Made by a program: the position numbers and the translations under genes. A DNA stretch of 43,435 nt from Clostridiaceae bacterium (GTDB taxonomy: Bacteria; Bacillota; Clostridia; SK-Y3): positions 1 to 43,435 of the forward strand of contig JAAYHJ010000065.1 of the NCBI GenBank assembly GCA_012735465.1, in the 5' to 3' direction. The notes under the pieces are model-generated. The model was not told where the DNA came from. It saw nothing but the letters and a program-made list of their open reading frames with translations, and did not search any database. This document shows, in pieces, positions 4,087-8,316 of this stretch. Within the stretch, counting starts at the first letter, position 1; every line of letters starts with the position of its first letter.

Positions 4087-4115
4087 TTGACATTTATTTA
4101 ACATTATGTTATTAT
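4087..4115 (+). promoter_or_regulatory. Sigma-A-type promoter of the hyd maturation operon
   Basis: TTGACA (4087-4092), a 17-base spacer and TATTAT (4110-4115) form a near-consensus vegetative promoter. Initiation about 7 bases later (around 4122) would give a leader of about 178 bases before the first start codon. This start places the whole hairpin series at 4128-4258 inside the transcript. Confidence 0.75.
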
Positions 4116-4121
4116 TTATTT

Positions 4122-4265
4122 ACCTGAGTTAAGAGTTTTTCTCTTAACGAAGCCAATAAAAAATGAATAACAGGGTAAGCCATTTCTAACACTGAAATTT
4201 TTTAAAGTGAAAGATACAATGGTCTGTAAATGAGGATAATTGCGTCTTTTACAGACGCTTTTTTT
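4122..4265 (+). promoter_or_regulatory. Riboswitch-like attenuation leader of the hyd operon
   Basis: The predicted leader RNA contains four pairings. (1) An 8-bp hairpin has GTTAAGAG (4128-4135) with CTCTTAAC (4141-4148). (2) A long-range stem pairs ACAG (4170-4173) with CTGT (4224-4227) and CCATT (4180-4184) with AATGG (4218-4222). It encloses a CACT/AGTG hairpin (4190-4193, 4206-4209). (3) A 9-bp stem has GTCTGTAAA (4222-4230) with TTTACAGAC (4248-4256). (4) A terminator is at 4242-4265. Stem 2 competes with stem 3 for 4222-4227, and stem 3 competes with the terminator. That is the layout of a transcriptional OFF switch. I recognise no known aptamer consensus in it. The ligand, or a protein partner, is unknown. 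Confidence 0.55.
4242..4265 (+). terminator. Intrinsic terminator in the hyd leader
   Basis: GCGTCT (4242-4247) pairs with AGACGC (4253-4258) around TTTAC, followed directly by seven T. It lies between the promoter and the first gene, 35 bases before the start codon. It therefore acts as an attenuator rather than an end-of-operon signal; nothing upstream on this strand needs terminating. Confidence 0.8.
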
Positions 4266-4299
4266 AATATTTTCCCTTGATAAGGAGGTTTACTAAAAC

Positions 4300-4569
4300 A
4301 TGGAAACAAGGGTAGCCGTAATAGGAATAATTGTAGAAAACAAGGACTCGGTTGAAAAGCTGAATGCCATTCTCCATGAATACAGCGAATATATAATAGG
4401 AAGAATAGGTATTCCCTACCGTGAAAAGAAAATCAATATAATTAGCATTGCCATCGACGCCCCCCAGGATATAATAAGCGCGTTATCCGGAAAAATAGGC
4501 AGGCTAAAGGGCGTCAGCGCAAAAACAGCCTATTCAAATATTATTACAAAAGCAGGTAACAGCCTATGA
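4300..4569 (+). CDS. TM1266-type iron-only hydrogenase system regulator
   Basis: An 89-residue small protein with a ferredoxin-like/ACT-type alpha-beta fold pattern: METRVAVIGIIVE opens a first strand, a helix follows, then GRIGIPYREKKINIISIAID and a final GVSAKTAYSNI strand. This matches the TM1266 family named as the putative iron-only hydrogenase system regulator, related to the NikR C-terminal domain but without a DNA-binding part. AAGGAGG lies 10 bases before the ATG. Its stop overlaps the hydE start (ATGA). It may bind a small effector and modulate hydrogenase assembly. A regulatory role is a family label rather than proven. Confidence 0.88.
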   Translation: METRVAVIGIIVENKDSVEKLNAILHEYSEYIIGRIGIPYREKKINIISIAIDAPQDIISALSGKIGRLKGVSAKTAYSNIITKAGNSL

Positions 4570-5612
4570 TTATGATTAACCTAATTGACAAGCTTTCAAG
4601 AGAAAATAACTTGACCCGGGATGAACTGCATTTTCTTATCGAAAACCGCACTAAAGAAACAGCAGAATATTTATTTGAAAAAGCCAGGCAGGCACGCATC
4701 CAAAACTACGGATATGATGTTTATATGCGCGGCCTTATTGAATTTACAAATTACTGCAAAAATGATTGCTATTACTGCGGGATAAGAAAAAGCAATCGTA
4801 ATGCCGATAGGTATCGCCTGACCAAGGAGCAGATACTCCACTGCTGCGCCGTGGGCTATGAACTGGGCTTTCGTACCTTCGTGCTTCAGGGGGGCGAGGA
4901 TGGCTATTACAGGGATGATATTATTGCCGATATCGTTAGCACCATTAAAACAAATTATCCTGATTGTGCCATTACCCTTTCAATAGGGGAAAGAAGTTAT
5001 GAAAGTTATAAATTGTTCTTCGAAGCAGGAGCTGAAAGGTACCTCCTCCGCCATGAAACAGCAAACCTTGAGCATTATTCAAAGCTTCATCCTTCAAACC
5101 TTTCTCTTGAAAACAGAAAACAGTGCTTATACAATCTAAAGGAAATAGGCTACCAGGTAGGATGCGGTTTTATGGTAGGTTCACCTTTTCAGACTATTGA
5201 CTGCATTGTTGAAGATTTACTTTTCATAAAAGAATTCCGTCCGCACATGGTGGGTATCGGTCCCTTTATACCCCATAAGGACACGCCTTTTGAAGGCAAA
5301 CCAGCCGGTACGTTGGAATTAACATTATTCTTATTGGGTATCATACGCCTTTTACTTCCCGGGAGCCTAATTCCTGCCACCACCGCATTAGGCACCATTC
5401 ATCCTAGGGGCCGGGAACTGGGCATTCTTGCAGGAGCAAATGTTGTGATGCCCAATCTTTCCCCTGCTGACGTAAGAAAGAAATACATGCTTTACGATAA
5501 TAAAATATGCACTGGGGATGAAGCGGCAGAATGCAGGATGTGCTTGCAAAGGCGTATAGAAAGTATTGGGTACAGATTAGTCGTATCAAGAGGGGACTGT
5601 AAATATATATAA
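4566..5612 (+). CDS. hydE: [FeFe] hydrogenase H-cluster radical SAM maturase HydE
   Basis: A 348-residue radical-SAM enzyme that helps make the dithiolate-bridged diiron subcluster of [FeFe] hydrogenase, acting on an iron-cysteine precursor supplied by HydG. The radical-SAM cluster motif C-x3-C-x2-C is at C64, C68 and C71 (CKNDCYYC), inside a TIM barrel with FVLQGGEDG as the SAM-binding glycine motif at about residues 111-119. Length and the N-terminal helical cap match the HydE family rather than biotin synthase, and no bio genes are nearby. Translation is coupled to the regulator by the ATGA overlap. An alternative ATG two codons later is possible. Confidence 0.95.
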   Translation: MIMINLIDKLSRENNLTRDELHFLIENRTKETAEYLFEKARQARIQNYGYDVYMRGLIEFTNYCKNDCYYCGIRKSNRNADRYRLTKEQILHCCAVGYELGFRTFVLQGGEDGYYRDDIIADIVSTIKTNYPDCAITLSIGERSYESYKLFFEAGAERYLLRHETANLEHYSKLHPSNLSLENRKQCLYNLKEIGYQVGCGFMVGSPFQTIDCIVEDLLFIKEFRPHMVGIGPFIPHKDTPFEGKPAGTLELTLFLLGIIRLLLPGSLIPATTALGTIHPRGRELGILAGANVVMPNLSPADVRKKYMLYDNKICTGDEAAECRMCLQRRIESIGYRLVVSRGDCKYI

Positions 5613-5685
5613 AAACTACTAATGAGGAAGATGCCTTATTACTTATTAAAAGCGGGTATCTGACTCAGAAGAAAGGAGAATAATC

Positions 5686-7104
5686 ATGTATAATCCAAAA
5701 TCATTAAAAGCAGAAGAATTTATTGATCATGAAGAAGTATTGGCATCCATTGAATACGGGGAAAAGTACAAGAATAATGTGGAGGTTATCGATGAGATAA
5801 TAGAAAAGGCAAAGCTGCGCAAGGGCCTTAACCACAGGGAAGCCTCCGTATTACTTGCATGCGAAATCCCTGAAAAAATCAATGAGGTTTATGAACTTGC
5901 TGAACAGATTAAAAAAGACTTTTACGGCAATAGGATCGTTTTGTTTGCACCTTTGTACCTGTCAAATTACTGTGTCAACGGATGTGTTTACTGTCCTTAT
6001 CACCGTCAGAATAAACACATAACAAGGAAAAAACTTTCGCAGGAAGATATTGCACGGGAAGTTATTGCTCTTCAAGACATGGGGCATAAGCGCATCGCAA
6101 TTGAATCAGGAGAAGATCCTGTAATGAACCCCATTGAATACATCCTGGAAAGCATTAAAACAATCTACAGCATCAAGCATAAAAACGGTTCAATACGCCG
6201 CGTAAATGTAAACATAGCCGCCACAACCGTTGAAAATTACAGAAAGCTAAAAGAAGCCGGTATAGGAACATATGTATTGTTCCAGGAAACATACAATAAA
6301 GAAAGCTATGAAAAACTTCATCCGACAGGACCCAAGCATGATTATGCATATCATACGGAAGCAATGGACAGGGCTATGCAAGGTGGAATAGATGATGTGG
6401 GTTTGGGAGTCTTATTTGGACTGGAATCCTATAAATACGAGTTTGCTGCGCTCCTGATGCATGCTGAACACTTGGAAGCAGTGTATGGTGTAGGGCCCCA
6501 TACCATAAGCGTACCGCGTATAAAACCTGCCGATGACATTGATCCCAACGCCTTTGACAATGCCATCAGTGATGATATTTTTGAAAAAATATGTGCATGT
6601 ATACGTGTAGCAGTTCCCTATACCGGAATGATCATTTCTACAAGGGAAAGCAAAGCCGTTAGGGAAAAAGTGCTTCGGCTTGGTGTTTCCCAGATAAGCG
6701 GAGGTTCAAGAACCAGCGTTGGCGGTTACTGCGAACCTGAGCCGGAAGACGAAAACTCGGCACAATTTGAGGTAAGCGACAGGCGAACCCTTGACGAAGT
6801 CGTAAGATGGCTTATGGAAAACGGTTATATACCGAGCTTCTGCACCGCCTGTTATCGTGAAGGCAGAACCGGCGATCGGTTCATGAGACTTTGTAAGAAC
6901 GGACAAATTCAAAATTGCTGCCATCCAAATGCACTCATGACATTGCAGGAATATCTCGAAGACTATGCTTCCCCCGAAACCAAGGAAATCGGAGAAACCC
7001 TAATAAACAGGGAAATAAACAATATCCCTAAGGAGAAAGTCAGAAGAATAGTTAAAGAAAACCTTGTTAATATAAAAAACGGCCAGAGAGACTTCAGATT
7101 ATAG
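5686..7104 (+). CDS. hydG: [FeFe] hydrogenase H-cluster radical SAM maturase HydG (tyrosine lyase)
   Basis: A 472-residue enzyme that splits tyrosine into p-cresol and dehydroglycine and converts the latter to the CO and CN- ligands of the H-cluster. The radical-SAM motif C-x3-C-x2-C is at C96, C100 and C103 (CVNGCVYC). The C-terminal cluster motif C-x2-C-x22-C is complete at C386, C389 and C412; it binds the auxiliary cluster with the dangler iron where CO and CN- assemble. This tail separates it from the thiamine enzyme ThiH. AAAGGAG precedes the ATG at the usual distance. It follows hydE by 73 bases and precedes hydF by 12. Confidence 0.97.
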   Translation: MYNPKSLKAEEFIDHEEVLASIEYGEKYKNNVEVIDEIIEKAKLRKGLNHREASVLLACEIPEKINEVYELAEQIKKDFYGNRIVLFAPLYLSNYCVNGCVYCPYHRQNKHITRKKLSQEDIAREVIALQDMGHKRIAIESGEDPVMNPIEYILESIKTIYSIKHKNGSIRRVNVNIAATTVENYRKLKEAGIGTYVLFQETYNKESYEKLHPTGPKHDYAYHTEAMDRAMQGGIDDVGLGVLFGLESYKYEFAALLMHAEHLEAVYGVGPHTISVPRIKPADDIDPNAFDNAISDDIFEKICACIRVAVPYTGMIISTRESKAVREKVLRLGVSQISGGSRTSVGGYCEPEPEDENSAQFEVSDRRTLDEVVRWLMENGYIPSFCTACYREGRTGDRFMRLCKNGQIQNCCHPNALMTLQEYLEDYASPETKEIGETLINREINNIPKEKVRRIVKENLVNIKNGQRDFRL

Positions 7105-7116
7105 GGGGGAAGTATC

Positions 7117-8316
7117 ATGGGACTTAATGACACACCATCTGCCAACAGAATACATATAGGCTTTTTCGGAAGACGAAATGCAGGAAAATCAAGCGTGGTT
7201 AATGCTGTAACCCAACAGGAAATGTCCTTGGTATCGGATATAAAAGGTACTACCACCGATCCCGTATACAAGTCCATGGAATTGCTTCCCCTGGGCCCGG
7301 TGATGATTATTGACACTCCGGGTTTTGACGATGAAGGTGCACTGGGAGAATTGCGAGTCAAAAGAACAAAGCAAGTTTTAAACAAAACCGATGTTGCTGT
7401 ACTTGTGGTTGACACATCCGTAGGGAAAACGGAAACGGATCTTGAACTTATTAAATTGTTTGAAGAAAAAAACATTAACTATATTGTCGCATACAATAAA
7501 AGCGACCTTGTTGAGAACCTCCCTGCCATAAACAATGACAATGAGTTGTATATCAGTGCAAAAGAAAAAACTGGGATTCATGAGCTTAAAGAAAAAATTG
7601 CATCCCTATCAGTAACGGGACAAACAAATTTAAGAATTGTCGGGGATTTGATTAAACCACTGGATTTTGTAGTGCTTGTGACACCCATTGACAGCGCTGC
7701 ACCAAAGGGAAGATTAATCCTTCCACAGCAGCAGACAATACGGGATATTTTAGATTCAGGCGCAACCGCAATAGTTGTAAAAGAGTTTGAACTGGCGGAT
7801 ACTTTAAAGAACCTTGGCAAGAAACCTGTCCTTGTCATTACCGACAGTCAGGCCTTTGAAAAAGTAGCAAGGGACACCCCAAAGGACATACCAATGACAT
7901 CCTTCTCCATTTTGATGGCAAGGTATAAAGGGTTTCTTGAGACAGCCGTAAAAGGGGTTTATACAATAGAAAAACTGGAGGACGGAGATACCATATTGAT
8001 TTCCGAAGGTTGTACGCATCACCGGCAATGTGATGATATAGGAAGCGTTAAAATTCCAAGATGGATAAATAATTATACAAAAAAACAAATTAACTTTGAA
8101 TTTTCATCGGGTATGGGTTTCCCGGAAGACTTATCCAAGTATAAGCTGATAATACACTGTGGCGGCTGCATGCTAAACGAACGGGAAGTAAAATACAGGG
8201 TTAAATGTGCCCTTGAGCAAAATATTCCAATAACAAATTACGGAATTTTAATTGCTTACCTGAAGGGAATCTTGAAGCGAAGCCTTGAAATTTTCCCTCA
8301 TCTGGCTATAAACTAG
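7117..8316 (+). CDS. hydF: [FeFe] hydrogenase maturation GTPase HydF
   Basis: A 399-residue scaffold and GTPase that receives the diiron subcluster from HydE and HydG and transfers it to apo-hydrogenase. The N-terminal Era-like G domain (about 10-175) shows the P-loop GRRNAGKS (18-25), the G2 region KGTTTDPV, G3 DTPG and G4 NKSD. A middle dimerization domain follows. The C-terminal cluster domain has C299 and HCGGC (347-351), the Cys ligands of its [4Fe-4S] cluster. Weak GGGGG precedes the ATG. It is the last gene of the operon, followed by a strong terminator. No structural hydrogenase gene lies in the window, so the target is elsewhere. Confidence 0.97.
   Translation: MGLNDTPSANRIHIGFFGRRNAGKSSVVNAVTQQEMSLVSDIKGTTTDPVYKSMELLPLGPVMIIDTPGFDDEGALGELRVKRTKQVLNKTDVAVLVVDTSVGKTETDLELIKLFEEKNINYIVAYNKSDLVENLPAINNDNELYISAKEKTGIHELKEKIASLSVTGQTNLRIVGDLIKPLDFVVLVTPIDSAAPKGRLILPQQQTIRDILDSGATAIVVKEFELADTLKNLGKKPVLVITDSQAFEKVARDTPKDIPMTSFSILMARYKGFLETAVKGVYTIEKLEDGDTILISEGCTHHRQCDDIGSVKIPRWINNYTKKQINFEFSSGMGFPEDLSKYKLIIHCGGCMLNEREVKYRVKCALEQNIPITNYGILIAYLKGILKRSLEIFPHLAIN

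What the first reader, a model, noticed from the sequence alone, without database searches (positions are those of the whole stretch)
4087..4299. Candidate new riboswitch or attenuator in front of the [FeFe] hydrogenase maturation operon
The sequence shows a consensus promoter, then stems that exclude one another. An aptamer-like closing stem (4170-4184 with 4218-4227) shares 4222-4227 with an antiterminator (4222-4230 with 4248-4256). The antiterminator in turn shares 4248-4256 with a terminator (4242-4265). The terminator sits before the first gene, so it can only regulate. If the closing stem is stabilised, the terminator forms and the operon is off. I do not recognise a named riboswitch consensus. 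A signal tied to the H-cluster or to iron-sulfur, tyrosine or redox status would make sense, and the first gene product (TM1266 family, which lacks a DNA-binding part) could be an RNA-level partner. The ligand is speculation.
Basis: partly seen in the sequence, partly recalled or inferred. Interest (0 to 1): 0.85.

Follow-up and report, generated by a model that had tools for sequence, protein, structure and literature searches.

The report
New leader RNA controlling hydrogenase maturation
Bacteria that build the [FeFe]-hydrogenase cofactor carry a small, apparently undescribed folded RNA switch in front of the cofactor-assembly genes; it probably turns those genes off through a terminator or by covering the ribosome site, and a small protein encoded by the same operon is the first candidate for what controls it.

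Summary
It is a conserved family, not a quirk of this window. The conserved part is a ~28-nt hairpin, window 4186-4213: CURA-[4 bp]-RA-[stem-loop]-GA-[4 bp]-RAAG. In 89 distinct sequences 94% of base pairs hold and 7 of 8 covary. In a search of 293 genomes all 34 hits lie before H-cluster genes: TM1266, hydE, hydF, hydG, aspA. No Rfam family matches; the papers I could read do not mention it.

In 73 of 75 leaders with room, a terminator follows. The hairpin's 3' strand pairs with the terminator's 5' arm (window 4207-4219 with 4240-4252), so a held hairpin should mean OFF.

Ligand unknown. The RNA follows TM1266 across genomes (19/63 with TM1266, 0/16 without, p = 0.007; 1/17, p = 0.03, counting one broken contig), so PyrR-like control by TM1266 is my leading, untested guess; a metabolite riboswitch is the main rival.

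The parts
4087..4115 (+). sigma-70-type promoter TTGACA-17 nt-TATTAT, TG before the -10
   Evidence: 11/12 consensus matches
4124..4152 (+). likely degenerate first (tandem) copy: CUGA-[GUUAAGAG-UUUUU-CUCUUAAC]-GAAG
   Evidence: weak hit with model R1, 11.2 bits, E=1; an upstream copy occurs in 9 of 73 leaders including this one, 1.65 expected from shuffles
4186..4213 (+). conserved hairpin core: CUAA 4186-4189, P2 CACU 4190-4193 with AGUG 4206-4209, loop, AAAG 4210-4213
   Evidence: covariance model hit 4183-4218, 34.1 bits; family covariation. The window sequence is in the R1 training set
4207..4219 (+). 3' strand of the core plus conserved tail GUGAAAGAUACAA, 5' half of the conserved antiterminator
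   Evidence: pairs with 4240-4252, 12 pairs and one mismatch; conserved pairing, p=1e-10
4240..4252 (+). 3' half of the conserved antiterminator UUGCGUCUUUUAC; overlaps terminator 5' arm and loop
4242..4265 (+). intrinsic terminator GCGUCU-UUUAC-AGACGC followed by a U-run
   Evidence: terminator present in 73 of 75 homologous leaders with room
4282..4288 (+). Shine-Dalgarno AAGGAGG of the TM1266 gene
   Evidence: sequence
4300..4569 (+). TM1266-family gene (PF21699, TIGR03959), candidate RNA partner
4566..5612 (+). hydE
   Evidence: TIGR03956
5619..5671 (+). second copy of the hairpin before hydG: CUAA-UGAG-GA-AGAU-(25 nt)-AUCU-GA-CUCA-GAAG
   Evidence: only match of the strict pattern in the window on both strands; 1 of 20000 shuffles of the intergenic region (pattern post hoc)
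5672..5678 (+). Shine-Dalgarno AAAGGAG of hydG, directly after the second copy
   Evidence: sequence; same layout in homologs
5686..7104 (+). hydG
   Evidence: TIGR03955
7117..8316 (+). hydF
   Evidence: TIGR03918

Best explanation
This is a conserved cis-regulatory RNA family of [FeFe]-hydrogenase H-cluster assembly operons. Its sensor is a short hairpin: a 4-bp helix flanked on both sides by purine-rich 2x2 internal loops (CU-GA/RA-AG outside, RA/GA inside), capped by a variable stem-loop. In the terminator form, the 3' strand of the hairpin (GAAAGRYRC) pairs either within the hairpin or, as an antiterminator, with the 5' arm of a downstream terminator. If a factor holds the hairpin, the terminator forms and the operon is off. 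In the translational form before hydG, the same hairpin lies directly against the Shine-Dalgarno, so holding it should block ribosomes. The window has both forms: terminator form before TM1266, translational form before hydG. Shown by sequence: conserved structure, covariation, gene association, terminators, alternative pairing, SD contact. Inferred: the direction (bound = off). Most likely trans-acting factor, inferred and untested (about 50%): the TM1266 protein itself, with or without a small effector, in the manner of PyrR and the pyr operon attenuators.
For: P2 by sequence-only anchors: 66 with at least 3/4 pairs against 9.6 in shuffles, 3 on the reverse strand. Covariation on 89 distinct rows: 94.4% paired vs 72.8% shuffled, score 0.609 vs 0.193, slid controls at most 0.137. 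Genome search not conditioned on TM1266: 34 of 34 R1 hits in 293 genomes before TM1266, hydG, hydE, hydF or aspA; aspA is an established hyd-operon gene (PMC11736057). Second search, phylum: 20 of 24 R2 hits in hyd operons, the other 4 about the number of chance hits expected at the cut-off. Terminator in 73 of 75 leaders with room; own core 3' strand x terminator 5' arm duplex -12.4 vs -8.8 kcal/mol swapped, p=3e-10. Window states nearly isoenergetic: core plus terminator -30.8, conserved antiterminator -31.5. 16 of 18 close-to-gene hits overlap a Shine-Dalgarno. TM1266 link: RNA in 19 of 63 HydG+TM1266+ genomes, 0 of 16 HydG+TM1266- genomes, p=0.007.
Against: No transcript, binding or reporter data. 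Direction of switching rests on base-pairing logic. p values treat related genomes as independent. Models R1 and R2 were trained on structures I proposed, and the A3 alignment is fitted to the model. TM1266 link: three RNA+ genomes show no TM1266 (G020, G177, G538); all have congeners with it, and the G020 contig ends about 300 nt past hydG, but true absence is not excluded; counting G020, p=0.033. Many TM1266+ genomes show no detectable RNA. TM1266-family proteins have no known RNA-binding activity.
Confidence: 0.75

Rival explanations
1. A metabolite or ion riboswitch: the hairpin binds a small ligand directly (an H-cluster intermediate, Fe, a HydG or HydE substrate or product) and TM1266 is only a neighbour.
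For: Conserved purine-rich internal loops, an expression platform of both riboswitch kinds, tandem copies in 9 of 73 leaders, and use in front of enzyme genes and a FecCD-type transporter in hyd operons.
Against: The core is very small, with few conserved unpaired bases and no multi-helix junction or conserved pseudoknot seen. In the hydG form the Shine-Dalgarno is beside, not inside, a helix, which suits a bulky bound protein better. The RNA tracks TM1266.
Confidence: 0.35
2. Some other protein (a maturase such as HydF, or a general RNA-binding protein) reads the hairpin.
For: All RNA+ operons encode HydE, HydG or HydF; autoregulation by a pathway protein is common.
Against: HydG is present in 80 of 118 genomes, but the RNA was found in none of the 16 HydG+ genomes lacking TM1266, not expected if a maturase alone were the partner.
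Confidence: 0.12
3. A constitutive leader terminator or RNA-stability hairpin without sensing.
For: Terminator hairpins occur by chance or for tuning; no expression data exist.
Against: Conserved internal-loop bases, conserved core x terminator pairing, and the same hairpin used at ribosome sites without a terminator.
Confidence: 0.04
4. One reading: closing stem 4170-4184/4218-4227 and antiterminator 4222-4230/4248-4256 as the working switch in this species.
For: Both can form; the antiterminator is the best of 72 swaps for its own terminator, -11.7 kcal/mol, and appears in the minimum-energy fold.
Against: Neither is conserved. In many homologs a -10 box lies about 11 nt before the core, leaving little room for a closing stem.
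Confidence: 0.15

Closest known systems
PyrR-controlled attenuators of the Bacillus pyr operon
   Same: Regulator gene first in the operon; several copies of one RNA element in one operon (before pyrR, pyrP and pyrB, compare TM1266, a FecCD transporter in some operons, hydG); a hairpin with conserved purine-rich internal loop acts as anti-antiterminator, so binding means termination (PMC7430163).
   Different: Different sequence and structure, no Rfam match; TM1266 is unrelated to PyrR (PF21699); a translational form exists before hydG; protein binding not shown.
Metabolite riboswitches with terminator and ribosome-site platforms (Rfam riboswitch classes)
   Same: Conserved aptamer-like unit, terminator or Shine-Dalgarno platform, single-pathway gene association, occasional tandem copies.
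   Different: No class matched; no ligand known; core only about 28 nt.
LicT/SacY RAT antiterminator hairpins (from general knowledge)
   Same: Short hairpin with two internal loops recognised by a protein dimer.
   Different: RAT is itself the antiterminator, stabilised by protein to turn genes on; here the hairpin competes with the antiterminator.
Kink-turn RNA (from general knowledge)
   Same: Tandem G.A-type pairs next to a short helix.
   Different: No conserved three-nucleotide bulge and no conserved outer helix.

Membership tests
Any Rfam 15 RNA family | covariance-model score above the family's gathering cut-off | tested here: not met
   window, 20 homologous loci, sensitive scans of two strong homologs: no match apart from tRNA at gathering; weak scores far below cut-offs
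PyrR-type protein-dependent attenuator | mutually exclusive anti-antiterminator hairpin, antiterminator and terminator | tested here: met
   by sequence only
PyrR-type protein-dependent attenuator | PyrR binding-loop family (Rfam model) and PyrR protein | tested here: not met
   no Rfam match; first gene is PF21699, not PyrR. It may work like PyrR control; it is not a member
PyrR-type protein-dependent attenuator | regulator encoded in the operon binds the hairpin | not testable with these tools
   only co-occurrence available
Riboswitch (functional class) | conserved structured sensor domain with covariation in leaders of a coherent gene set | tested here: met
Riboswitch (functional class) | direct binding of a small ligand without protein | not testable with these tools
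   needs in-line probing or similar
T-box | T-box covariance model (stem I, antiterminator with conserved T-box sequence) | tested here: not met
   no T-box match in any Rfam scan
Kink-turn | outer helix and three-nucleotide bulge beside tandem G.A pairs | tested here: inconclusive
   outer loop G.A and A.(A/G) near invariant, no conserved outer helix; three-dimensional fold not tested

The most novel reading that the evidence does not exclude
A new class of protein-RNA switch: the TM1266 protein, a DNA-binding-free relative of the NikR sensor domain, reads a pseudo-symmetric RNA hairpin and reports the state of H-cluster or iron supply, shutting maturation genes by termination and by ribosome blocking in the same operon.
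Probability: 0.4. Interest if true: 0.92.

Novelty: new variant of a known kind. Interest (0 to 1): 0.8.

Why it matters
How cells control assembly of the H-cluster, the active site of [FeFe]-hydrogenases, appears little studied: the H-cluster paper I searched has no text on regulation, and TM1266 is only named a 'putative regulator'. This RNA supplies a concrete control element with defined bases, a ready list of target genes (TM1266, hydE, hydF, hydG, aspA, a FecCD transporter) and a candidate partner, so both the function of TM1266 and the signal that limits hydrogenase maturation become directly testable. If the ligand is an H-cluster intermediate or iron species it would also be a new kind of sensing target and a handle for hydrogen-producing strains.

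Tried and rejected
Known family: rejected, no Rfam match. Extra copies elsewhere in the window's genome: none at E<=0.01 with R1 or R2; DNA search found only the window itself. Some R2 hits outside hyd operons (L160, L165, L170, L171) were judged chance or coding repeats. First script read several loci on the wrong strand and was redone. P2 was used to choose the first training set, so its covariation is partly circular; the sequence-only anchor test and the unselected P3 pairs were used instead. Literature: no mention of hydrogenase or hyd genes in the main texts of PMC6429828, PMC2864571, PMC8632094, PMC11109978, PMC2965389; their supplements and Weinberg 2017 could not be read.

Full report
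Observation. The window holds TM1266 (4300-4569), hydE (4566-5612), hydG (5686-7104) and hydF (7117-8316) in one row. Upstream are a near-consensus promoter at 4087-4115 and one terminator at 4242-4258 before the first start codon. The leader folds better than its shuffles, z = -2.5. Rfam gives nothing here.

Homologs. TM1266 genes from 60 relatives and 80 named genome contigs gave 109 leaders. By eye and by scan many carry one motif: YCUGA-NNNN-RA-stem-loop-GA-N'N'N'N'-RAAGR, usually followed by a terminator. A sequence-only anchor test (C[UC][GA]A ... RAAG) found 66 sites with at least 3 of 4 P2 pairs, against 9.6 in dinucleotide shuffles and 3 on the reverse strand. This does not select on pairing, so P2 is supported independently of my training choice.

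Structure. A covariance model R1 from 41 cores and then R2 from 91 hits give 8 pairs. On 89 distinct rows 94.4% of cells pair against 72.8% when shuffled; covariation 0.609 against 0.193, and at most 0.137 when the partner strand is slid; 7 of 8 pairs show two-sided changes. A3 is fitted to the model, so part of this leans towards the structure; P3 pairs in A2 were not selected and also covary. The outer loop is almost invariant: G.A in 78 and A.A in 13 of 91, then A.A or A.G in 90. The two strands read alike, so the hairpin is roughly two-fold symmetric. Tandem sheared G.A pairs are my inference.

Gene association. R1 searched 293 genomes of the class without regard to TM1266: 34 hits in 33 genomes at E<=0.01. 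All lie before TM1266, hydG, hydE, hydF or aspA. aspA supplies ammonia for the H-cluster and is a known hyd-operon gene (PMC11736057). Some of these genomes had given training sequences. R2 in 398 genomes of the phylum gave 24 hits, 20 in hyd operons; the four others have E>=1e-4 and match the few chance hits expected at E<=0.01. In L100 and L043 a second copy sits before a FecCD permease inside the hyd operon. A few gut MAGs labelled Alphaproteobacteria or proteobacterium also carry it before hydG.

Switch. Of 75 hits with a gene at least 25 nt downstream, 73 have a terminator in between. The core's 3' strand pairs with its own terminator's 5' arm better than with others', -12.4 against -8.8 kcal/mol, p = 3e-10 (a second cut gives -12.1 against -8.6, p = 1e-10). 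These p values ignore relatedness. In 40 of 71 leaders a -10 box ends a median of 11 nt before the core, against 23.5 in shuffles, so transcripts often start right at the hairpin.

Second platform. Before hydG the hairpin abuts the Shine-Dalgarno; 16 of 18 close hits show this. The window has the same layout at 5619-5671: UGAG/CUCA and AGAU/AUCU pair, followed by GAAG-AAAGGAG and the hydG start at 5686. The strict pattern occurs once in the window on both strands and in 1 of 20000 shuffles of the intergenic region. I found it by eye first, so this figure is post hoc; its 25-nt loop is longer than usual and R1 scores it poorly (11.1 bits). A likely first copy, 4124-4152, belongs to a tandem arrangement seen in 9 of 73 leaders, 1.65 expected.

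Partner. Of 118 genomes at least 95% complete, 80 have HydG and 63 of these TM1266. The RNA is in 19 of the 63 and 0 of the 16 without TM1266 (p = 0.007), or 1 of 17 (p = 0.033) if G020 is counted. The TM1266+ count pools strict and loose searches. G020's contig ends about 300 nt after hydG, near where its congener G102 has TM1266; G177 and G538 also have congeners with it. TM1266 is PF21699, relates to 2NZC and weakly to the nickel sensor NikR, and lacks a DNA-binding part. The same domain ends an ABC ATPase in some hyd operons, which suggests a sensor. This fits a PyrR-like scheme: regulator gene first, several copies of the element, hairpin as anti-antiterminator (PMC7430163). It is inference; binding was not tested.

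Verdict. A real, apparently undescribed regulatory RNA family; switch logic likely; partner open. Novelty is limited by what I could read: Rfam 15 and five motif papers show nothing, but supplements and some papers were out of reach.

Noticed in passing
L043:5431-6537 and L100:5466-6536: FecE-type ABC ATPases with a C-terminal TM1266-like domain, next to a FecCD permease, inside hyd operons. Looks like a sensor domain on an iron-type importer, comparable to NIL domains.
   Followed up: partly
window 5619-5671: Second copy of the RNA hairpin directly before the hydG Shine-Dalgarno.
   Followed up: yes
L009 (G013), L004, L032, L069, L119: Leaders with two complete tandem hairpins.
   Followed up: partly
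L121:1501-1538 and L133:1501-1538: The RNA sits before aspA, supporting the published ammonia-lyase role in H-cluster assembly.
   Followed up: yes
L053, L039, L057: Gut MAGs labelled Alphaproteobacteria or proteobacterium carry TM1266, hydG and the RNA, suggesting transfer across phyla or mislabelled bins.
   Followed up: no
G000:C10:18522-18743: A second, distant TM1266-like gene in the window's genome, 33% identity.
   Followed up: no
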